From: Candidatus Jettenia caeni
GTDB taxonomy: Bacteria > Planctomycetota > Brocadiia > Brocadiales > Brocadiaceae
Direction of reading: 5' to 3'
DNA length: 64,000 bases
NCBI GenBank assembly: GCA_000296795.1
Contig: BAFH01000003.1
Location: 1,779,290-1,843,289, forward strand
The position numbers were made by a program, and so were the translations under genes. Of the stretch, positions 338-41,793 are shown one piece after another. Every line of letters begins with the position of its first letter. The stretch's first letter is position 1. Under the pieces are notes generated by a model. The model saw only the letters and a program-made list of their open reading frames with translations. It had not been told where the DNA came from and did no database searches.

Positions 338-450
338 CACCACTCTGTATATCAATTTACCTATGTATTGATTGTGAACCCTTTGAGCATAAAAAGTTCT
401 TCCTAAAAAATAGCCATAAAATCCTCAAAATTTTTACTTCTCCTTGCTGT

Positions 451-498
451 GTGACATGTCACGCCTTTGTGACATGACACAGAAGCGTGACATGTCAC
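451..498. repeat. Triple GTGACATGTCAC palindrome array, copy A
   Basis: Three 12-bp palindromic units start exactly 18 bases apart: GTGACATGTCAC (451-462), GTGACATGACAC (469-480, one mismatch) and GTGACATGTCAC (487-498). They are separated by 6-base spacers. Degenerate copies of the same triple arrangement occur at 16236-16270, 25613-25659, 29382-29427 and 38881-38908, always between genes. The units resemble a shortened CRP/FNR-type site (TGTGA...TCACA with a 4-base centre), but the shared flanking sequence of several copies argues for a dispersed repeat element. Confidence 0.8.
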
Positions 499-827
499 GT
501 TTTCCGTGTTTCATTTTAGTAATCTCTTGTTTTGTATTCATACCATCTATACTATTCCGCATGTAATCCGTACGAAAATCCAAATCCGTAAAAAATACTA
601 TCGCAAGACCTTTTTCCTGTGTCTATCCTTTGATAGCCGTTCCGTCTTTCTGTGTTTTCTGTCATAATTATCCGTACTTCATATGAAAACAACCTGCTAA
701 GGTAGCATTTTCTATTTCATTGTTCTCTCCTGCCACAATAAATGACACTTATTTCTCTATGTTTTTTGCGATCTAAAGGTGTGCAGAAATTTGCTATTAA
801 AAATAAAACAATCAATTTCCACATTCC

Positions 828-857
828 TTGAGATATTGGCATATATTTTTCTATATA
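828..857 (+). promoter_or_regulatory. Sigma-70-like promoter upstream of the EPS operon
   Basis: TTGAGA at 828-833 is followed after 18 bases by TATATA at 852-857. Transcription would start near 864. This would place a possible TTG start codon at 828 inside the promoter and favours a translation start at 888 or 921 for the first EPS gene. Recognised by eye only. Confidence 0.4.
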
Positions 858-920
858 CTCTCTCAAGTAATTAAAAAAATTTTTTCAATGTGTTTTTCAC
901 TGTGTCATATTAATAGTGCT

Positions 921-2327
921 ATGTTAAAAGAACATTATGTCATATTCAGAGGTCTGATGACGTTTTCAGACATGTGTATAGTCTTCGCGACTTTCTTTTT
1001 AGGATTTTACTTAAGAAAGCATCCTAATGGTTATTATCAGATGAGTGATTATCTTATCCTTATACCTATACTCCTGATTATTTGGGGAGTCCTTTTGTAC
1101 TGCTTTGGAATGTATAATTCCTTCAGAACCAAACATATATCAGATGTCTTATTTATTGTAATTGAAGCAGCTCTTGTTGGATGTAGTCTTTTTGGAAGTT
1201 TCATCTTTATCACAAAAATGAATTCCGTTAGCAGACTCCATATCGTTTACTCATTTCTCTTCGCAGTAATGTTTATAAGTATTGAAAAAATTGCTCTCAT
1301 ACAATTTTTTCGGTATCAACGGAAAAAAGGTTTTAATACAAGGAACATTTTAATCGTTGGAACAGGTGTAAGGGCGCAACATCTTATCAATTTAATTAGC
1401 AATCATCCTGAATGGGGAATCAGGATAATTGGTCTCGTCGATAATGATACAACAAAAATAAACACGATGATCTGTGGATACAAAGTAATCGGATCCTTTA
1501 ACGATGTAAGTGATATTCTTCATAATTGTGTTGTCGACGAGGTTATATTTGTTGTTCCACGCTCATGGCTAAGCAAGATTGAAAAGATAATGTCTATGTG
1601 TGAGATAGAAGGATTAAAGGTAAGTGTAGCGCTTGATTTATTTGAACTTAAATTATCAAAGGCAAAATATAGTAATTTGGAAAAGCTTCCTCTGCTTACC
1701 TTTGAGAGTACTCCCGATAAATTATTGCATCTTTTTATTAAGCGATTATTTGACTTAGGTGTTTCTACAACTGCCCTTATAGTATCATCGCCAGTTTTTG
1801 CATTAGCTGCTATAACGGTAAAAATGACATCAAGAGGTCACATCTTTTTTAAACAGCAAAGATGCAGCCTGAATGGCAGAACATTTACCATGTATAAGTT
1901 CAGAACAATGGTTGAAGACGCCGAAAGCAAACTCAACGATCTTCTTAAATATAATGAAATGAAAGGCCCTGTCTTTAAAATGAAAAACGATCCCAGAGTA
2001 ACGAGGGTTGGAAAATTTTTAAGAAAATTTAGTATAGACGAACTGCCGCAATTATGGAGTGTATTTAAAGGTGATATGAGCCTGGTGGGCCCAAGGCCTC
2101 CCATTCCGAATGAAGTAAGTAAATATGAGCCCTGGCAACGAAGACGGCTCAGTATGCGACCAGGTTTAACATGCCTTTGGCAGGCATACGGAAGAAATAA
2201 GATAACTGATTTTAACGAATGGATGCGGCTGGACTTAACGTATATTGATAACTGGTCGCTCTGGCTTGATTGTAAAATATTATTAAAAACATTACCGGTA
2301 GTGTTGTTTGGAGTAGGAGCAAAATAG
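921..2327 (+). CDS. Undecaprenyl-phosphate sugar phosphotransferase (initiating EPS transferase)
   Basis: This is a polyisoprenyl-phosphate hexose-1-phosphate transferase of the WcaJ/PssY type. It would start the exopolysaccharide repeat unit by moving a sugar phosphate onto the membrane lipid carrier. The N-terminal third has four hydrophobic segments. A Rossmann-like CoA-binding domain follows near residue 140 (NILIVGTGVRAQHL). From about residue 275 comes the bacterial sugar transferase domain, with a membrane-entering helix and the motifs KFRTM, DELPQLW and SLVGPRPP. ATG at 921 was chosen because the first membrane helix follows shortly after. The frame is open up to a TTG at 828, and an ATG lies at 888, but no site has a clear ribosome-binding site and 828 overlaps a promoter-like sequence. 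It heads the EPS operon. Confidence 0.9.
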   Translation: MLKEHYVIFRGLMTFSDMCIVFATFFLGFYLRKHPNGYYQMSDYLILIPILLIIWGVLLYCFGMYNSFRTKHISDVLFIVIEAALVGCSLFGSFIFITKMNSVSRLHIVYSFLFAVMFISIEKIALIQFFRYQRKKGFNTRNILIVGTGVRAQHLINLISNHPEWGIRIIGLVDNDTTKINTMICGYKVIGSFNDVSDILHNCVVDEVIFVVPRSWLSKIEKIMSMCEIEGLKVSVALDLFELKLSKAKYSNLEKLPLLTFESTPDKLLHLFIKRLFDLGVSTTALIVSSPVFALAAITVKMTSRGHIFFKQQRCSLNGRTFTMYKFRTMVEDAESKLNDLLKYNEMKGPVFKMKNDPRVTRVGKFLRKFSIDELPQLWSVFKGDMSLVGPRPPIPNEVSKYEPWQRRRLSMRPGLTCLWQAYGRNKITDFNEWMRLDLTYIDNWSLWLDCKILLKTLPVVLFGVGAK

Positions 2328-16202: not shown

Positions 16203-16235
16203 CTACATGTATCTCTTCCCTCATGTATCCTGTCT

Positions 16236-16270
16236 CACTTTTGTTGCATTACACTTCTGTGTCATGTCAC
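16236..16270. repeat. Triple palindrome element, degenerate copy B
   Basis: The best unit is GTGTCATGTCAC (16259-16270), preceded by degenerate units with spacers ttttgt and ttct. Upstream lies CCCTCATGTATCCTGT, which matches the flank of copies C and D read on their opposite strand (CCCTCATTCCTGT and CCCTTCATTCCT). This shared flank links it to the same dispersed family. Confidence 0.5.
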
Positions 16271-16653
16271 ATGTCCTGATCATTTTCATGGTTTTATCTT
16301 TGTCTGTTTCTGCGTGTATAAGAGATCTAAATCAGAGAAAGGCAATACAAAATTCCTCTTGAGATACTTCTTTTCTCTGTATTCTCATATCCATCCTGCA
16401 AAAGCTATGTCTTGGTTCAGTATTTGCACTTCTTCCTTTCATTCTCTTGACACAATTCACTGCTCATCGACAGGAGAACAATCTGTAGCATAACGTTTTT
16501 TTGACACAATATGAATTATACATTGGCAGAGCAAAAGTATCATATTCGATCGTATATTCAGGGAATTCAGGAAATGCATACGAAAATACTTCATTCTCAT
16601 GTGTTGATAAAAACAGGGAAGATTTAAAAAAAGGACTTATTAAGAATTTAAAA

Positions 16654-17880
16654 ATGAATGTTTTAATTGGAATTTTAATGTATCCACCGGACTTCACCGG
16701 GGCGGGTTTAAGAATTCACAGATTGTACTCTAACTTGCGGAAAAAGGGAGTAAACAAGGTCTATGTTATTACGAATAGCATAAATAAAACCGAGAAGAAA
16801 ACAAGAACGTATGATGGTATAGAGATCATCTACATTGGTTGTAACAAATATGCCGGAAGGCAAACGCATATAGGAAGAAAGTTCCTGAAGACTATGTTTG
16901 TTTTGCGAATATTTTTTAGAACCACGATAACATTTTTAAAACTTCAGTCTGAAGTTGATATCATTCATACCGTTGATTCAAGTTGGCTCTCTAGTTTAAT
17001 AGGTTGGTATGCCTTTTTAGTGAAAAAGCCTCTGGTAAAGGAGATTGTTTCGTTAGGTATGGACGATCCTCTAACACTTCAAAAAACGAAACTCCCTCTT
17101 TTAAGATATTTTTTCTTATTTCCATTTCATTACGCCAGGTTAGTTATCGTGATATCTCCACCGTTAAAAGACGCATGCACAGCCTATGGTTTACCGGCAG
17201 ATAAAATCTGGTGCAGATTTAATCCAATCTATCTGGATAGCTTACATGAGGAGAACGATACGAATATTGTTTCAAGATATTTAGACTTTTCTGCCCGCAG
17301 GATTTTGTGGGTTGGGGTTATCATACGAAGAAAGAATCTTGAATTTCTCTTAAATGCAGCATTCTATCTGAAAGGAAAAATTCAATTACTCATCGTAGGG
17401 CCACACCCTGATGAGGAGTATTTCCGTGAAATTATATCTTTATCGGAAACGATTACTCAGGAAACAAACGGCAGGATCAAAATTTCATTTTTAGGCAGAA
17501 TAGACGACAGGAAAGAATTGGTTGCCCTGTATAAGAACTCACATTTATTTTGGTTCGCTTCACATAATGAGGGATTGGGTAATGTTGTCATTGAATCCTT
17601 ACTCTGTGGAACACCCATTGTGACTTTGCCCGTGAATAATATTATGAACTATGTAATTCAAAATACCGAAGATGGCGAAGTTGTGAATACCGATGATCCA
17701 AGGTATTTTGCGGATATTGTAAACATATGTTTACATAATAATATTTATCACAGAGATCAAATAGCTGAGAGAGCAAAAAAAAGATTTAATCATGATCAGA
17801 TTGAAAATGAATATGTATTCAAGTTTTACGATATTATGAGATTAAAAATGACCGATAAGTATACTGAAAAATCCCTGTAA
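16654..17880 (+). CDS. Glycosyltransferase family 4/1
   Basis: A GT-B enzyme whose N-terminus MNVLIGILMYPPDFTGAG is the typical first strand and glycine loop of this group. The C-terminal domain has ARRILWVGVIIRRKNLEF, LLIVGPHPDEEY and the donor-binding acidic motif NEGLGNVVIESLLCGTPIV. The frame continues upstream to a TTG at 16501, but those 51 residues do not look like a GT4 domain, so ATG 16654 was chosen despite a poorly spaced AAGGA. It opens a second gene block with the radical SAM gene 27 bases downstream. Confidence 0.85.
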   Translation: MNVLIGILMYPPDFTGAGLRIHRLYSNLRKKGVNKVYVITNSINKTEKKTRTYDGIEIIYIGCNKYAGRQTHIGRKFLKTMFVLRIFFRTTITFLKLQSEVDIIHTVDSSWLSSLIGWYAFLVKKPLVKEIVSLGMDDPLTLQKTKLPLLRYFFLFPFHYARLVIVISPPLKDACTAYGLPADKIWCRFNPIYLDSLHEENDTNIVSRYLDFSARRILWVGVIIRRKNLEFLLNAAFYLKGKIQLLIVGPHPDEEYFREIISLSETITQETNGRIKISFLGRIDDRKELVALYKNSHLFWFASHNEGLGNVVIESLLCGTPIVTLPVNNIMNYVIQNTEDGEVVNTDDPRYFADIVNICLHNNIYHRDQIAERAKKRFNHDQIENEYVFKFYDIMRLKMTDKYTEKSL

Positions 17881-25406: not shown

Positions 25407-25612
25407 CGTTAAATCTAAACTCCATTATAGTATAGAGAATCTACCCTCCCGTACAACTCTATGAATATTATTGATGTAAATCACAAATCGGTAAATCTGC
25501 CGGATTTTATAGAAAATTATATGCCAAAATATCAGAGAAGTAAGAAAAATAGTTAAATTGTATTCTGATAACGGATATCCATGTAATTTTAACCAAAAAT
25601 GTATACGAAATA

Positions 25613-25659
25613 TGTGCCGTGTCACATAAGTGAATACCACAGAGATGTGACACGGCACA
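25613..25659. repeat. Triple palindrome element, copy C
   Basis: Two perfect 15-base inverted arms (25613-25627 and 25645-25659, containing GTGCCGTGTCAC and GTGACACGGCAC) enclose a 17-base centre with a third degenerate unit (GTGAATACCAC, 25630-25640). The outer units have changed in a compensatory way, keeping the pairing. On the right it is followed by AGGAATGAGGG and TACTACG, shared in part with copy D. Confidence 0.75.
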
Positions 25660-25752
25660 CAGGAATGAGGGTAATGAATACTACGAACGGAAAGAGTTAT
25701 GGGCAAGACTTGAATGGCAAATCCTTTGCGGCCTTTTTTAAACAAACTTCGA

Positions 25753-25789: not shown

Positions 25790-27091
25790 ATGAATATTTC
25801 TAATACTAGAGACCTTATAAGATCCGGGATAATAAAGCGCCTCACTTTGATGTTTACCGGAAATATCTTTGCCGCAGGCCTGGGATTCTTAGCAGTGCTC
25901 ATAATCTCAAGAGAATTGAGTGTAAGTGATTTTGGGCTTTTCAACATGGCAATATCAGTCATACTCATCTCTTCCCGCTTGTCAACTCTTGGCATGGATA
26001 CTACCATGATAAAATTTGCCTCTTCATATTTAATCCTCAAAAAAAAGGCCGAAGTTAATTACGTGCTGAGAACAATTTTTCTTGTAAGGATCATAATAAG
26101 TTCTATCCTTGCTCTTGTAGTGTTCATTGCATCTGAAATAGTATCAACAAAAGTCTTTTACCATCCAGGTTTAACTTCACTTCTTAAATTAGCAGCTTTT
26201 GGCGGCTTAACTTTTTCTCTGTTAAATTATTTAAAATCCGTACTTCATACATATCAATTATTCAGAAAATCCGTTATCCTGCAGATTTTTATTGATTTGG
26301 GTAAGCTATTTACCGTGATAGTTTTAATATGGTATTTAAAAATGAGCGTTTTTATTGCTGTTGCAATTTTTGCTTTCATTCCTGTATTAGGCATCTTTCT
26401 TGGGTTTAAAAATATCTGTCCTGTATTCTTTTCAGAAAAAAAACCTATACAGAATCTCTTCAAACAACTTTTTTCTTATAGTAAATGGATGTTTGTAAGC
26501 AATACGTGTAATCTTATACTTCCGTATGTTGGTATCTTTATGATCTCAAGGATGTTGAGTAGCGAGGCTGCGGGTATCTATGGGTTGGCAGTTAATCTTA
26601 CCTACATCTTTCCAATAATTATTTATTCTTTACACTCCGTACTGTTGCCGAAAGTATCCAGGTTTCGGGAAATAGCACAATTTGAAAAATATATAAGAGA
26701 TGCTTTAAAGGTTTCACTTTATATGGGGATAATAATTGTCCCCTTCTTATTTTTCTCCCATGCTGTTATACAATTCTTTTTTGGTTCTCGATATCTCGGC
26801 GCCGTTCCCGTTTTTAACTGGTTTTTGTTAAGTTACACTATCCTCACCGTTAATACTACTCTCCATGTAGCACTATACTCTATGAGTAAGCCTTACATAA
26901 TAGCTATAGCCGATGTGGTGAATTTGATGGTAATGATCATCGGGTGTTATATCCTCATACCCCTTTTTCATGCTGTGGCCCCAGCCCTCCTTATGTTGAT
27001 TATCCATGCAAGCAATTTGGGTTTTTTTTCTCTGTATATTTTAAAGAACATACGTACGGGGACCATTCTATTTCACAATACACATTATTAA
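25790..27091 (+). CDS. Wzx-type oligosaccharide flippase
   Basis: A 433-residue polytopic membrane protein of the MOP/MATE-like polysaccharide biosynthesis family. It has about 12 to 14 hydrophobic helices and the family opening (LMFTGNIFAAGLGFLAVLIISRELSVSD...FNMA). It should flip the lipid-linked repeat unit from the cytoplasmic to the periplasmic side before polymerisation. It is the only flippase seen and so the likely partner of the Wzy-like protein at 7961. The start has no obvious ribosome-binding site. It converges with the GT2 gene ending at 27122. Confidence 0.88.
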   Translation: MNISNTRDLIRSGIIKRLTLMFTGNIFAAGLGFLAVLIISRELSVSDFGLFNMAISVILISSRLSTLGMDTTMIKFASSYLILKKKAEVNYVLRTIFLVRIIISSILALVVFIASEIVSTKVFYHPGLTSLLKLAAFGGLTFSLLNYLKSVLHTYQLFRKSVILQIFIDLGKLFTVIVLIWYLKMSVFIAVAIFAFIPVLGIFLGFKNICPVFFSEKKPIQNLFKQLFSYSKWMFVSNTCNLILPYVGIFMISRMLSSEAAGIYGLAVNLTYIFPIIIYSLHSVLLPKVSRFREIAQFEKYIRDALKVSLYMGIIIVPFLFFSHAVIQFFFGSRYLGAVPVFNWFLLSYTILTVNTTLHVALYSMSKPYIIAIADVVNLMVMIIGCYILIPLFHAVAPALLMLIIHASNLGFFSLYILKNIRTGTILFHNTHY

Positions 27092-28082: not shown

Positions 28083-28976
28083 TTAAAAATTGTTTTGCTG
28101 TTTTTCCTTTCTTTTTCGTTCCGTTAGCTTAACGAGCAAGCCGTATATACCTCCCCGTAAAAGAAAATAAGGTATATGAATAAAAAAGTAATAGGGAATG
28201 AAAACCAATAAATGCATTAATTTGGCATTCAGTAGCTCAAAGAGAAAAAGGTTCCTGAGGAGAAGGTAAGCCCTGCGGAAGATAAATTTATTCATTGTGG
28301 AGGCATTCTTATGCCATACCCGTGCTTCTTTCACTACTACAACCCGAAAACCTTTCTGTGCTGCTCTGACATTGAAATCTGTTTCTTCAAAATAGACCCC
28401 ATATATCGTTTGGAACGATCCGATCTTTTTAAAAACTGATGTCTTTATAAGATTTGAACAGCCTAAGATAGAATCGACCTTAGCTATTTCATCGCCTTTA
28501 TTCCTGAAAATATCGCGTCCACATTTCAGTTTTTTTAGTCTTCCGGTCCAAAAATTTATCTTGTAACCAATATTGTCTATCGTTTCAGGATTGCTATAGG
28601 AATATACAACCGGGGCTATAACACCTATATTCTCATCCTGTTGCCCCACCTCAATGAGTCTTTTTAAAGAATCTTTCTCGACCGCAACATCATTATTGAA
28701 TACCCAGATATAATCTATTTCTCTCTCCATGCCATAAGCAATACCTTGATTTACCGCTCTTACATAGCCAAGGTTCCTCTCATTCTCTATAAGAGAAACC
28801 TCCGGATAATAAAGAGATACTGCCGCCTGAGAACCATCGTTCGATTTGTTATCGATGACCAATATTTTACAATTATCTTTTGGATAATTTAGCTTCATTA
28901 TTGAGGCGAGGCATTCTAAAAGATCATCTTTACCATTCCAGTTGACAATAGCTATCAGAACCGAGGGTATATCCAT
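28083..28976 (-). CDS. Glycosyltransferase family 2, rhamnosyltransferase-like
   Basis: GT2 domain beginning PSVLIAIVNWNGKDDLLECL with VIDNKSNDGS and the metal motif WVFNNDVAVE near residue 95, as in the WbbL-like/rhamnosyltransferase group. A later FEETDFNVRAAQKGF supplies the acidic acceptor motif. The C-terminus has two hydrophobic segments. The frame is open upstream to ATGs at 29000, 29015 and 29069; none has a ribosome-binding site, and 28976 puts the domain at the usual distance from the N-terminus. It probably starts the last EPS transcript, read towards 27122. Confidence 0.85.
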   Translation of the reverse strand: MDIPSVLIAIVNWNGKDDLLECLASIMKLNYPKDNCKILVIDNKSNDGSQAAVSLYYPEVSLIENERNLGYVRAVNQGIAYGMEREIDYIWVFNNDVAVEKDSLKRLIEVGQQDENIGVIAPVVYSYSNPETIDNIGYKINFWTGRLKKLKCGRDIFRNKGDEIAKVDSILGCSNLIKTSVFKKIGSFQTIYGVYFEETDFNVRAAQKGFRVVVVKEARVWHKNASTMNKFIFRRAYLLLRNLFLFELLNAKLMHLLVFIPYYFFIHIPYFLLRGGIYGLLVKLTERKRKEKQQNNF

Positions 28977-29381
28977 AGTATAGGAAGTAGTGCCATACAT
29001 AATTTTTTTTGTCATTATTGAGTTTAAGACATTTCTGAGAGGCAAAAAGAGTATGGTTATAAAATGCAATTAAATTCTCTTACATGCCGGATAACTGCCA
29101 GACCTTTGATGAAGAAAAAAATATGCCAAGATAAGCATAAGATGGGAAAAATACCTAAGTTTTATTAGCAAATCTTTATAAATTTTGCATCAAAATGCAT
29201 GATACTGTAGCACAATTTATTTCATAAGTAATTTATTTGTTTAATCTTATTACACAATAGTATCTGTTATTTTCATGCATCATGAAATAAAATAAAATAC
29301 CGTAATATCCATTACTTTTCTGGTGCAATGAAGAAGCAAACCATATAGGGTAACTATGAGATTATCAAAAATATGAAAAGT

Positions 29382-29427
29382 GCGACATGTCGCATACGTG
29401 TGATATCACAGGAGTGTGACATGGCAA
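29382..29427. repeat. Triple palindrome element, copy D
   Basis: Three units spaced 17 bases: GCGACATGTCGC (29382-29393), TGTGATATCACA (29399-29410) and GTGACATGGCAA (29416-29427). Several changes are symmetrical, so each palindrome is preserved. The right flank AGGAATGAAGGGG...TACTATGCGG resembles that of copy C. Confidence 0.65.
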
Positions 29428-36265: not shown

Positions 36266-36625
36266 TTAATACCCGCCACTTTTACGTTGCGGTGTGGTTT
36301 CTGTCTGTGTATAGGAGTCAGGATCTTTTTTGAATGTTTTCTTGCACTGTTCTGAACAGAAATAGTAAGTTTCTCCGTCATGCTCTTCTGACGGTGCCTT
36401 TTTTATATTGCTTACTTCCATATTACATACAGGATCTTTAGCAGCCCCGCTTTCTTCACTTTCCATCCCTGCTTTTGTTTGAATTATGTATCCATTTGAC
36501 TCATAGCGGTTCTGTTTACTCTCAGCTTCATAAATCCCGTATGCCCATGTAACCGTACTCATATAAGCGCCACCGAAAACTATAACAAAAACCGGTATTA
36601 AAGTTCTTCGTAAGATAGTATTCAT
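36266..36625 (-). CDS. Secreted YHS-domain protein
   Basis: A 119-residue protein with a hydrophobic N-terminal segment (RTLIPVFVIVFGGAYMS). The YHS domain begins at DPVCNMEVS and ends YYFCSEQCKKTFKKDPDSY near residue 105. The Cys residues of YHS domains usually bind a metal such as copper or zinc. ATG at 36625 has a strong GAGGAGG site. Its location next to a cation ATPase and cytochromes would fit periplasmic metal handling, but the link is positional only. Confidence 0.82.
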   Translation of the reverse strand: MNTILRRTLIPVFVIVFGGAYMSTVTWAYGIYEAESKQNRYESNGYIIQTKAGMESEESGAAKDPVCNMEVSNIKKAPSEEHDGETYYFCSEQCKKTFKKDPDSYTQTETTPQRKSGGY

Positions 36626-36863
36626 CGTGTAGCCTCCTCTTAAAAATTATTAAAGATTTAAATAACCTTTGCATTGTAATTGGAGAGCAAATTATATACC
36701 AACCATAAAGGTAAATTCACGTTACTACAGTATTCAACAATATGTCAAATAGAATTAGTGGATCAAATAGCATGCATTATTATTAATAAGAGTATATTCC
36801 CTGTATTCGGCTCCCTGTCTTATAGATTTTTATTTTGTACTTGTTAAGCATTATGCTACAATC

Positions 36864-38855: not shown

Positions 38856-39300
38856 CAGTACATGTGCCATATCATATTCTCATATGTCTCACCTTTGTGA
38901 CATGTCACACGTTCACCACACCGCATTCTTATAAACCTATTGCTGTATAGCGTTTTTACCTTATAAAGAAATAATATGGAAAATTTGCTATTCATGCTAT
39001 ATTCAGGTATAGCCGTCCTTTCAATGCATTATTAAAAGTATTTATGATGTAACATCTTACCCCTTTAAGACCGCAATAAACGATACCGAATTTTTCTATT
39101 CTTCTGTAGTATCAAGAATTCAGGAATCTCCTATTAGCGCAATTAAATTTTGTTATTTTTCTACTCCTTCTTTACTTTGGTACATTTTTTTCTCATGTGT
39201 TTTCATAAAACGTTCATAAAAGGGATACTATGGTCTGTCCGGAGGTATTCTTTTATAAATTAATTTTACAATAAGCAAGGTCGGGAGGAAGTAAAAAGAT
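38856..39300. other. Intergenic region with palindrome copy E
   Basis: 445 AT-rich bases between cstA and the repeat-protein gene. Apart from the palindrome element at 38881-38908 no gene or clear promoter is recognised; a GGAGG lies 12 bases before the next ATG. Confidence 0.5.
38881..38908. repeat. Triple palindrome element, copy E
   Basis: One perfect unit GTGACATGTCAC (38897-38908) is preceded by a degenerate unit ATATGTCTCAC (38882-38892) and followed by ACGTTCACCACAC. The spacer CCTTT before the perfect unit resembles that in copy A. It lies 25-53 bases past the cstA stop. Confidence 0.6.
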
Positions 39301-41793
39301 ATGAATCATAAAAAATTATTAGCAAGGTTAGCAAGCGCATATTTCATCGTAATTCTTATAAGCCTTTTCTGTAGTAATATCAATACCTCTCAGGCAGCAT
39401 GGGTTAAAGGCGCTGTGGATGCTCCGAAATGGTTTTCTGAGTTTCAAAGACATTCTTCTCGGGCAATTGCAATTGACTCCTATAAACGACCTCATGTTGT
39501 TTATGGAGGGGATCACCTTTACTATGCATACCATAACGGTAATACCTGGATTTATCAGACAGTAGATGTATCACCGGGGGTAGGGCAGTATGCCTCCATA
39601 GCAATTGACGCGTCAGGCAAAGTACATATAAGCTATTACGATGCAACGTATGGTAACCTTAAATATGCTACCAATAAATCCGGCCCCTGGATAAAAACTA
39701 CTGTAGACAGTACCGGCGACGTGGGGAGCCATACCTCAATAACGGTTGATTCATTAAATAAGGTGCATATCAGTTATCTTTATTTTGATTCTACTGCGGA
39801 AGAAACTAAGCTTAAATATGCCACCAATAAATCTGGCTCCTGGATAAAGACCATCCTTGGTAGCGGGGGTTGGGATAATTCCATAGCAGTTGATAAATCA
39901 GGCAAGGTACATATATGCTATCAAGAGGCTAGTGATATCCTGGAGACCAATCTTCTCAATTATGTTACCAATACATCAGGTTCATGGGAAATCGTAGCTA
40001 TAGGCAACTTTGGTATGTTCTCTTCAATAGCAATTGATACGGCGGGTAAGATACATATCAGTTATTATAATGAATCTCATGGCGATCTTAGATATGCTAC
40101 CAATAAATCCGGTGTATGGGCAACAGAGATCATAGATAATAGCGGGATAAGTGTAGGTATGTTTACCTCCTTAGCACTCGATACGTCCGGCAAGGCGCAT
40201 ATCAGCTATTACGATGGTTATCCTAATTCTAACCTTAAGTATGCTACCAATAAGTCAGGCTCATGGATAAAAACTACTATGGATAGCTACGGGGATGTTG
40301 GTTGGTTTACCTCGTTAACGCTTGATACATCAGGTAAGGCTTATATTAGCTATTACGATGATTCCAAAGGTTACTTTAAATATGCTACCAATAAGTCAGG
40401 CTCATGGGTAAAAACTATTATGGATAAGAATGGGATTGTAGGTGAATATACCTCCTTAGCGATTGACACAGCAGGCAAGATGCATATCAGTTATTATGAT
40501 TGTTTTAAACGTGACCTTACCTATGCCACCAATAAATCCGGCTCATGGGTGAAAACTATCGTCGACAGTTACGGAGATGTAGGCCGGTACAACTCCATAG
40601 CGCTTGATACTGCAGGTAAAGTACACATCAGCTATTGTGATAATTCTAAAAACGACATTAAATATGCTACGAATACATCTGGCTCATGGGTAAAAACCGT
40701 TGTGGATAATACGGATGTAGGTCCATATACCTCTCTAGCAGTTGACTCATTCAGTAAGGTTCATATTAGCTACTATGATTTTAATAACGACAGTCTTAAA
40801 TATGCTACCAATAAATCCGGTGCATGGGTAAAGAAAACTCTGGAGCATGGAGGAATATGGTCATCTATAGCCGTTGATACTTCAGATAAAATACACATCA
40901 GCCATTATTATTCCGGTCTTACATATACGACCAACAGATCTGGCACATGGGCAAGCACCCTTGTGGAGGGTATTACGCTTATGGGTTTCTCTACCTCTAT
41001 GGCAATTGATACCTATGGTAAGACGCATATCAGTTATACCAATGGCGATCTCAAGTATGCTACCAATAAATCCGGTGCATGGGTAAAAACAACCGTTGAC
41101 AGTGCTGCAGATTCAGTAGGTGATTATAACTCAATAGCAGTAGATACATCCGGCAAGGCACACATTAGTTATTATGATGAGAGTACTGATAATCTTAAAT
41201 ACGCTACGAATAAATATGGCAATTGGTCTAAAGCAATCGTGGACTCACATGGGTCTTTAGGATTATATACCTCCATAGCGCTGAATGCGTCAAATAAGGT
41301 ATACATCAGCTACTACGATTTGAGTAATGGCGATCTCAGGTATGTTACCGATGCCTCTTCCTTATCTCCATCAGACTTGTATGTAAAAGAGACCGAAGAT
41401 AGTGCAGGTGCGGAGGTTCCCGATGAGGATACTATCTCCGATACGACATCAGGTATTATGCAAGTCGGCTATCATGGGAATGTTGGCGATAAATCTAACT
41501 CCACCACCACGTATTCAATTTCCGGATATATCCTGGATGAAAACGGATTTCCAATAGAAGGTGTAAAACTGAATCTTGGAATAAGAGGACATATCGATAC
41601 TACAAAATCAAATATGAATGGGTTCTTTGAGTTTAAAAATTTACGGAAAGGTATTTATCGCATTACAGCGGAAGAAAACAGTTATAAAAAATACACACGG
41701 GAGATAAAACTTCTCAGAAAAGAAGAAAAAAGTATGGTCATCAAATTGATTAAGAAAAATAAAGAGAAGTATGATATAGCTTTACAGTATTGA
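39301..41793 (+). CDS. Secreted protein of about 14 propeller-like repeats plus carboxypeptidase-regulatory-like domain
   Basis: A signal peptide (LASAYFIVILISLFC to SQAAW) is followed by some 14 repeats of about 42-48 residues. Each carries SLAIDTSGK, HISYYD, LKYATNKSGSW and a VKTTVDS-type stretch. The repeats resemble beta-propeller blades, and 14 would suit two seven-bladed propellers. The last 110 residues form a carboxypeptidase-regulatory-like beta sandwich (YSISGYILDENGFPIEGVKL to YRITAEENSYKKY), often found in surface proteins. There is no catalytic motif and no sorting signal. The function is unknown, with adhesion or matrix binding plausible. The repeats are similar at the DNA level, so copy number may vary between strains. 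The hairpin after the gene has been invaded by an IS. Confidence 0.75.
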   Translation: MNHKKLLARLASAYFIVILISLFCSNINTSQAAWVKGAVDAPKWFSEFQRHSSRAIAIDSYKRPHVVYGGDHLYYAYHNGNTWIYQTVDVSPGVGQYASIAIDASGKVHISYYDATYGNLKYATNKSGPWIKTTVDSTGDVGSHTSITVDSLNKVHISYLYFDSTAEETKLKYATNKSGSWIKTILGSGGWDNSIAVDKSGKVHICYQEASDILETNLLNYVTNTSGSWEIVAIGNFGMFSSIAIDTAGKIHISYYNESHGDLRYATNKSGVWATEIIDNSGISVGMFTSLALDTSGKAHISYYDGYPNSNLKYATNKSGSWIKTTMDSYGDVGWFTSLTLDTSGKAYISYYDDSKGYFKYATNKSGSWVKTIMDKNGIVGEYTSLAIDTAGKMHISYYDCFKRDLTYATNKSGSWVKTIVDSYGDVGRYNSIALDTAGKVHISYCDNSKNDIKYATNTSGSWVKTVVDNTDVGPYTSLAVDSFSKVHISYYDFNNDSLKYATNKSGAWVKKTLEHGGIWSSIAVDTSDKIHISHYYSGLTYTTNRSGTWASTLVEGITLMGFSTSMAIDTYGKTHISYTNGDLKYATNKSGAWVKTTVDSAADSVGDYNSIAVDTSGKAHISYYDESTDNLKYATNKYGNWSKAIVDSHGSLGLYTSIALNASNKVYISYYDLSNGDLRYVTDASSLSPSDLYVKETEDSAGAEVPDEDTISDTTSGIMQVGYHGNVGDKSNSTTTYSISGYILDENGFPIEGVKLNLGIRGHIDTTKSNMNGFFEFKNLRKGIYRITAEENSYKKYTREIKLLRKEEKSMVIKLIKKNKEKYDIALQY

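What the first reader, a model, noticed from the sequence alone, without database searches (positions are those of the whole stretch)
451..498. Dispersed triple-palindrome element (GTGACATGTCAC) in five intergenic regions
Copy A has three 12-bp palindromes at an exact 18-base period. Related triple sets lie at 16236-16270, 25613-25659, 29382-29427 and 38881-38908, all outside genes. Units change symmetrically (for example GTGCCG.../...CGGCAC in C, GCGACATGTCGC in D), as if pairing or dimer binding is under selection. Copies B, C and D also share a flank like CCCTCATTCCT, which suggests a mobile or REP-like element and not merely a regulator site. Three of the five copies lie in the EPS locus or at its edges.
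Basis: partly seen in the sequence, partly recalled or inferred. Interest (0 to 1): 0.7.

Follow-up and report, generated by a model that had tools for sequence, protein, structure and literature searches.

The report
Triple-palindrome switch for anammox surface genes
The repeated triple palindrome is most likely a landing pad where six copies of one activator protein assemble to switch on about 50 genes, many for slime and cell-surface proteins, in bacteria that turn ammonium into nitrogen gas; it is not a mobile repeat.

Summary
The window lies in an anammox planctomycete (genus Ca. Jettenia). GTGACATGTCAC (up to 1 mismatch) occurs at 49 places in the genome against 1 for the reversed control. 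About 55 copies form one 48-bp module: two 12-bp palindromes about 34 bp apart around a shorter one, i.e. six half-sites. Modules lie between genes, usually oriented with the downstream gene. Downstream on the same strand, 49 of 56 have a sigma-54-type -24/-12 promoter (TGGTATATTTTTTGAT or TGGCATAnnTTTTTCT), against 5 of 56 upstream.

The likely binder is a receiver-PAS-AAA+-Fis enhancer-binding protein (4 paralogues here). It follows the module across 59 relatives (p about 2e-10, kinship ignored). Of 20 own enhancer-binding proteins compared, only this kind is present in a module-rich relative and absent from two module-free ones. In Geomesophilobacter and Syntrophaceae most of the few modules sit beside its gene. 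Modules are conserved in place between genera; flanks are unrelated. A mobile/REP-like or CRP/FNR reading is not supported.

Best reading: a hexamer-assembling enhancer for a sigma-54 regulon of exopolysaccharide, surface-protein and signalling genes. Binding and activation are inferred, not shown.

The parts
449..501 (+). Triple-palindrome module A (units 451-462, 469-480, 487-498)
   Evidence: Profile R1, 42.3 bits
837..852 (+). Predicted sigma-54-type promoter of module A, TGGCATATATTTTTCT (-24/-12). It lies inside the mechanical ORF 828-2327, so the true start codon is probably further downstream.
   Evidence: PWM 21.1
828..2327 (+). Downstream gene of A: EPS polyprenyl glycosylphosphotransferase, first gene of the EPS locus
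   Evidence: TIGR03025, 437.5 bits over cut-off; Bac_transf
16223..16272 (+). Module B
   Evidence: R1, 45.5 bits
16413..16428 (+). Weak predicted sigma-54 promoter of B, TGGTTCAGTATTTGCA; a similar site lies at a similar distance from a module in relative G005
   Evidence: PWM 10.8
16501..17880 (+). Downstream gene of B: group 1 glycosyltransferase
   Evidence: Pfam PF00534
25611..25660 (.). Module C, between divergent genes
   Evidence: R1, 31.5 bits on + and 30.8 on -
25715..25730 (+). Predicted sigma-54 promoter of C, rightward, TGGCAAATCCTTTGCG
   Evidence: PWM 14.2
25511..25526 (-). Predicted sigma-54 promoter of C, leftward, TGGCATATAATTTTCT
   Evidence: PWM 18.5
25790..27091 (+). Rightward gene of C: polysaccharide flippase family
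   Evidence: Pfam PF01943
29379..29426 (-). Module D
   Evidence: R1, 41.5 bits
29113..29128 (-). Predicted sigma-54-type promoter of D, TGGCATATTTTTTTCT
   Evidence: PWM 22.5
28083..29069 (-). Downstream gene of D: family 2 glycosyltransferase
   Evidence: Pfam PF00535
38861..38910 (+). Module E (first unit degenerate)
   Evidence: R1, 26.7 bits
39178..39193 (+). Predicted sigma-54-type promoter of E, TGGTACATTTTTTTCT
   Evidence: PWM 20.8
39301..41793 (+). Downstream gene of E: BNR / carboxypeptidase-regulatory-domain protein, surface-type
   Evidence: Pfam PF15892, PF13620

Best explanation
The 48-bp module is an upstream activating sequence (enhancer) for a sigma-54-dependent regulon in anammox bacteria. 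Its three dyads offer six half-sites. Three dimers of a receiver-PAS-AAA+-Fis enhancer-binding protein (bEBP; here C3:1755621-1757324 and three paralogues) would bind side by side and close into the hexameric ATPase. By DNA looping it would then open RNA polymerase-sigma-54 waiting at a -24/-12 promoter, usually about 80-380 bp downstream, and switch on exopolysaccharide, surface-protein, redox and signalling genes, including the activator's own cluster of PAS histidine kinases, an HD-GYP protein and a diguanylate cyclase. Shown here: the module's structure, number, orientation and conservation; the promoter motif downstream; the link to this bEBP by phylogenetic profile, gene neighbourhood and recognition-helix agreement. 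Inferred: physical binding, hexamer assembly, looping, activation, and a kinase input.
For: Number and structure: 49 places against 1 control; outer units 33-34 bp apart in most copies of four genomes. Orientation: 45 of 56 have a same-strand gene next downstream with no opposite gene between. Promoter: unbiased motif finding on downstream DNA gives TGGTATATTTTTTGAT in the -24/-12 register, upstream DNA only T-rich sequence; PWM hits 49/56 downstream same strand, 6/56 downstream opposite, 5/56 upstream same, 13/56 upstream opposite. The same PWM finds sites at 112-136 bp in 7 of 13 modules of G024 (2 more at 178-179) and at 138-144 bp in all 6 positives of 11 in G058. Conservation: six orthologous promoters in G005 keep the module at 62-78% identity against 36-50% in flanks; one promoter, TTGGCACATCTTTTTCT, is unchanged. 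Regulator: 25 of 27 genomes with an orthologue of 63% identity or more have at least 4 module matches, against 4 of 32 without (p=2.3e-10). Of 20 own bEBPs compared, only this kind is in G005 and absent from both G012 and G011. Linkage: Geomesophilobacter's only module is 20 bp after its only homologue; all three Syntrophaceae G059 modules adjoin a homologue, and so do one each in G060 and G061, all with helix RRT(I/L)YR. One rpoN in each of six genomes.
Against: No binding or expression data. The -12 box is often GA or TC rather than the usual GC (31 GA, 16 TC, 13 GC, 12 GT over four genomes). The PWM was trained on this genome's downstream DNA, so its 49/56 is not independent there; the relatives G005, G024 and G058 are the independent check. 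Exceptions to the profile: G038 (10 matches, no homologue found), G003 (4, none), G006 (orthologue, 1 match), G057 (orthologue, 2), G058 (36 matches, different recognition helix). The profile is not corrected for shared ancestry. 2 of 22 own and 3 of 16 G012 bEBPs were not in the comparison, though searched the whole genomes for homologues. Module-promoter distance varies widely in Jettenia (11-540 bp).
Confidence: 0.84

Rival explanations
1. The module is an enhancer of a sigma-54 regulon, but a different protein (another bEBP or a co-regulator) binds it, and the RR-PAS bEBP is only a frequent target of the regulon.
For: Modules lie both before and after bEBP genes, as expected of targets; G038 and G003 have modules but no homologue found; G058 has a different recognition helix.
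Against: In Geomesophilobacter the single module of the genome lies beside the single homologue; none of the other 17 own bEBPs compared fits the G005/G012/G011 profile; G058's palindrome is itself shifted to GTGCCATGGCAC, as expected if helix and site change together.
Confidence: 0.1
2. A REP/MITE-like mobile repeat that happens to lie in intergenic DNA.
For: About 55 dispersed, mostly intergenic copies.
Against: Unrelated flanks except in two true duplications and the promoter region; module kept upstream of orthologous genes between genera; orientation and promoter relation. A transposase was not looked for genome-wide.
Confidence: 0.02
3. An operator of a repressor or CRP/FNR-type regulator acting at ordinary sigma-70-type promoters.
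For: Dyads with TGTGA half-sites resemble CRP-type sites.
Against: Half-sites 4 bp apart, not 6; sites usually 80-380 bp upstream of a -24/-12-like motif; linkage to a sigma-54 activator.
Confidence: 0.03
4. A single-stranded structure (RNA leader or DNA hairpin) with selected base pairing.
For: Units 1 and 3 of copy C are exact reverse complements.
Against: RNAalifold covariation term is 0.04 kcal/mol over 30 copies and only 3-4 bp stems are predicted; no Rfam family in the window; positions 4 and 9 mostly change on one side only.
Confidence: 0.01

Closest known systems
NorR enhancers at norVW of E. coli
   Same: Three adjacent enhancer sites act as a scaffold for a hexameric bEBP upstream of a sigma-54 promoter (PMC2941729; PMC6296734).
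   Different: NorR is a GAF-domain NO sensor with few targets (general knowledge); here a receiver-PAS protein, a different dyad, and about 55 modules in a genome.
PEP-CTERM box / PrsR-PrsK of Proteobacteria
   Same: A bEBP site plus a sigma-54 promoter in long intergenic regions, shared by many surface and EPS-linked genes, found with its regulator by phylogenetic profile (PMC1569441).
   Different: Motif 1 there is a 17-nt motif ending TTTACA, 32-92 nt from the promoter, and the authors found it only in Proteobacteria; PrsR (TIGR02915) is not over cut-off in this genome; modules here occur without an exosortase (G005) and are absent with one (G012).
CbrB targets in Pseudomonas putida
   Same: Three bEBP subsites upstream of a sigma-54 promoter (PMC6296734).
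   Different: CbrB subsites are non-palindromic with variable spacing; here dyads with near-fixed spacing.

Membership tests
sigma-54 enhancer (UAS) of a bEBP regulon | -24(GG)/-12(GC) promoter downstream on the same strand | tested here: met
   Motif in register in 49/56 against 5/56 upstream; GG near invariant. The GC of -12 is often GA or TC, so this part is met mainly in position.
sigma-54 enhancer (UAS) of a bEBP regulon | Dyad site(s) upstream of the promoter at looping distance | tested here: met
   Median 178 bp in G000, 157 in G005, 120 in G024, 141.5 in G058
sigma-54 enhancer (UAS) of a bEBP regulon | Candidate cognate bEBP with AAA+ sigma-54 domain and HTH; rpoN present | tested here: met
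sigma-54 enhancer (UAS) of a bEBP regulon | Protein binds the site and activates transcription | not testable with these tools
   Needs bench work
NorR-type triple enhancer | Three enhancer sites in a row upstream of a sigma-54 promoter | tested here: met
NorR-type triple enhancer | Activator with GAF domain (NorR) | tested here: not met
   Receiver plus PAS in Pfam
PEP-CTERM box / PrsR regulon | PrsR (TIGR02915) over curated cut-off | tested here: not met
   Best in own genome 434 bits against cut-off 502.6
PEP-CTERM box / PrsR regulon | Occurs with an exosortase | tested here: not met
   G005: modules, no exosortase; G012: exosortase, no modules
REP/MITE mobile repeat | Copies share ends or flanks, insert at varied places | tested here: not met
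REP/MITE mobile repeat | RAYT-type transposase in the genome | not tested
CRP/FNR site | TGTGA-N6-TCACA | tested here: not met
   Consensus TGTGA-N4-TCACA in outer units

The most novel reading that the evidence does not exclude
The module is a hexamer template of set geometry: outer dyads of 12 bp, a middle dyad about 2 bp shorter, in one copy of relative G024 a perfect 50-bp palindrome. It serves a global activator of the anammox cell exterior, whose recognition helix and half-site change together between lineages, acting on two classes of sigma-54 promoter in which the -12 GC is replaced by GA or by TC.
Probability: 0.35. Interest if true: 0.72.

Novelty: new member of a known kind. Interest (0 to 1): 0.58.

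Why it matters
In the papers searched here no enhancer motif or regulon of this sort was described for anammox bacteria; absence from that library is weak evidence. The module gives, by sequence alone, a list of about 50 target promoters and one testable activator whose cluster also encodes PAS kinases, an HD-GYP protein and a diguanylate cyclase. Exopolysaccharide and surface proteins matter for granule formation in wastewater treatment (general knowledge). The related module families with shifted half-sites are also a natural data set on bEBP recognition.

Tried and rejected
First guess Bacteroidales from G+C content and genome size: dropped once downstream genes (P460 and other redox proteins) and named hits (Jettenia, Brocadia) showed anammox. 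RNA or hairpin element: no covariation, no Rfam match. REP/MITE: flanks unrelated. PrsR as binder: not over cut-off. PEP-CTERM-only regulon: exosortase does not track modules. Nucleoid-occlusion-like site (prompted by uneven spread in G001): set aside, since orientation and promoters explain the sites; origin and terminus were not mapped. Shared flank CCCTCATTCCT: 5/56 against 2.0 expected. Pattern hits in Providencia and Sorangium: no modules by profile and no homologue; the Providencia, most Sorangium and the Yersinia hits lack the middle unit. The primary NorR three-enhancer paper was not held.

Full report
Observation. GTGACATGTCAC with up to 2 mismatches occurs 10 times in the window against 1.22 expected. 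The window lies in a 4.09-Mb, 4-contig genome where the 12-mer with up to 1 mismatch occurs at 49 places, against 1 for the reversed control. The genus follows: the record of Ca. Jettenia ecosi gives hits at the same coordinates as G002, a same-genus relative. I recall Ca. Jettenia caeni as a 4-contig genome of about this size, but that is memory, not a test.

Anatomy. Aligned copies show one module: GTGACATGTCAC, linker, a shorter middle dyad TGTGAcggCACA, linker, GTGACATGTCAC. Outer units are 33-34 bp apart in most copies of four genomes; A is at 36, and L023 and L018 are odd. Linkers (CACACTTTTGTG) give direction in Jettenia, whereas copy L187 of G024 is a perfect 50-bp palindrome with equal scores on both strands. 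A profile finds about 56 modules in this genome and many in relatives: 40 of 59 genomes with at least one match at E<=0.01, 79-86 matches (both strands counted) in the genus, none in many others.

Not a structure, not a mobile repeat. Covariation over 30 copies is nil. Flanks of 150 bp match only between two pairs of true duplicates and in a set of short blocks, most of them on the downstream side where the promoter lies. Six orthologous promoters in G005, another genus, keep the module at 62-78% identity while the 100 bp upstream are 38-50% and the DNA downstream 36-48% identical. That is conservation in place.

Gene context. Modules are intergenic, rarely between convergent genes (4 of 56), and 45 of 56 point to a same-strand gene. 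One of the exceptions, C3:1912873, is better read on the other strand, where it has a promoter and a concordant gene. Targets include the EPS locus in the window (sugar transferase, glycosyltransferases, flippase), asparagine-synthase-type amidotransferases, LamG/PKD/BNR surface-type proteins, an Slp lipoprotein, a GH20, a P460 cytochrome, a Rieske-DAO protein, a V/A-ATPase-like gene, a histidine kinase, HD-GYP proteins and the exosortase gene.

Promoter. A regex derived from the first sigma-54 scan hit 34 of 56 downstream regions on the module strand, 0 of 56 upstream on the same strand, 1 of 56 downstream and 6 of 56 upstream on the opposite strand; background 0.047 per 700 bp. Unbiased EM on downstream DNA recovers TGGTATATTTTTTGAT in the -24/-12 register; upstream DNA yields only T-rich sequence. 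With this PWM, 49/56 against 5/56; because both regex and PWM come from this genome, the independent evidence is in the relatives: 11/20 in G005, 9/13 in G024 (seven at 112-136 bp) and 6/11 in G058, all six at 138-144 bp. Jettenia sites fall into two main classes, TGGTAT...TTTTGAT and TTGGCATA...TTTTTCT; there is one rpoN in each of six genomes. In copy C promoters lie on both sides, at 25526 (-) and 25715 (+), facing divergent genes.

Regulator. PrsR, the activator of the Proteobacterial PEP-CTERM box, is not over cut-off here. Two modules flank a receiver-PAS-AAA+-Fis bEBP at C3:1755621-1757324. Over 59 relatives, 25 of 27 genomes with an orthologue of 63% or more have at least 4 module matches, against 4 of 32 others (Fisher p=2.3e-10, kinship ignored). 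Within one genus, G005 has 3 copies and 48 matches, G012 has none and 0. Comparing 20 own bEBPs one by one, only this kind is present in G005 and absent from G012 and G011. The recognition helix agrees: SRR(T/S/N)(I/L/V)YRK in module-rich genomes; YNK in module-free G046, G048 and G055; SRSTFYRK in G006 (1 match); IDRKTIYTK in G058, whose palindrome is mostly GTGCCATGGCAC. Exceptions (G003, G038, G057) stand.

Linkage in other phyla. A pattern scan of 84,980 species found pairs in Jettenia, Brocadia, Anammoxibacter, Syntrophaceae and Geomesophilobacter, plus other hits. In Geomesophilobacter the genome's only module is 20 bp after its only bEBP homologue; in Syntrophaceae G059 all three modules lie 8-26 bp from a homologue; in G061 the one module is 27 bp away, and in G060 one of three is 234 bp away. 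Providencia, Sorangium and the Oceanospirillaceae record have neither module nor homologue. I did not compute a chance value for this linkage.

How it would work. Three dimers bind the three dyads, the AAA+ domains close into a hexamer, and looping delivers it to sigma-54 polymerase. This is by analogy with NorR, whose three enhancer sites are essential and scaffold a hexamer (PMC2941729). The neighbouring PAS histidine kinases, HD-GYP and GGDEF genes suggest phosphorylation and c-di-GMP links; this is inference. Sigma-54 control of the cell exterior is an established theme (PMC3162934), and Haft et al. expected further motifs for such systems (PMC1569441).

Verdict. A new member of a known kind: a large sigma-54/bEBP regulon with an unusually regular triple enhancer. 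The link between module and promoter is strong; the identity of the binder is strong but indirect; activation is untested.

Noticed in passing
G001:C1 (same genus, one contig of 3.82 Mb): Modules are unevenly spread: only 10 of 51 lie in 1510-3230 kb (45% of the chromosome). The interval was chosen after seeing the data; origin and terminus were not mapped.
   Followed up: partly
L021 and L028; L035:3839 and L047:7605: Two pairs of modules with identical 150-bp flanks: C2:846885 and C3:1168199, and the two ends of contig C4 (3837 and 1206602), so duplicated regions, the second perhaps the repeat that broke the assembly.
   Followed up: partly
window 36686-36701 (-): A -24/-12-like site TGGTATATAATTTGCT (PWM 16.8) before ORF 36266-36625 with no recognised module, possibly a promoter of another bEBP.
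   Followed up: no
L114 (relative G006): Orthologue of the bEBP (76% identity) with altered recognition helix SRSTFYRK in a genome with a single module match: a possible natural loss or change of specificity.
   Followed up: partly
L141-L145, L147, L148, L156, L157, L159, L161-L163, L166: Paired GTGACATGTCAC at similar spacing in Providencia, Sorangium, Yersinia and a Ruminococcaceae MAG; most lack the middle unit and some look like tandem repeats. What they are was not studied.
   Followed up: no
G000:C3:1896351-1897121 (-): The exosortase gene has a module about 0.8 kb upstream with a good promoter at 105 bp, so the regulon touches protein sorting.
   Followed up: partly
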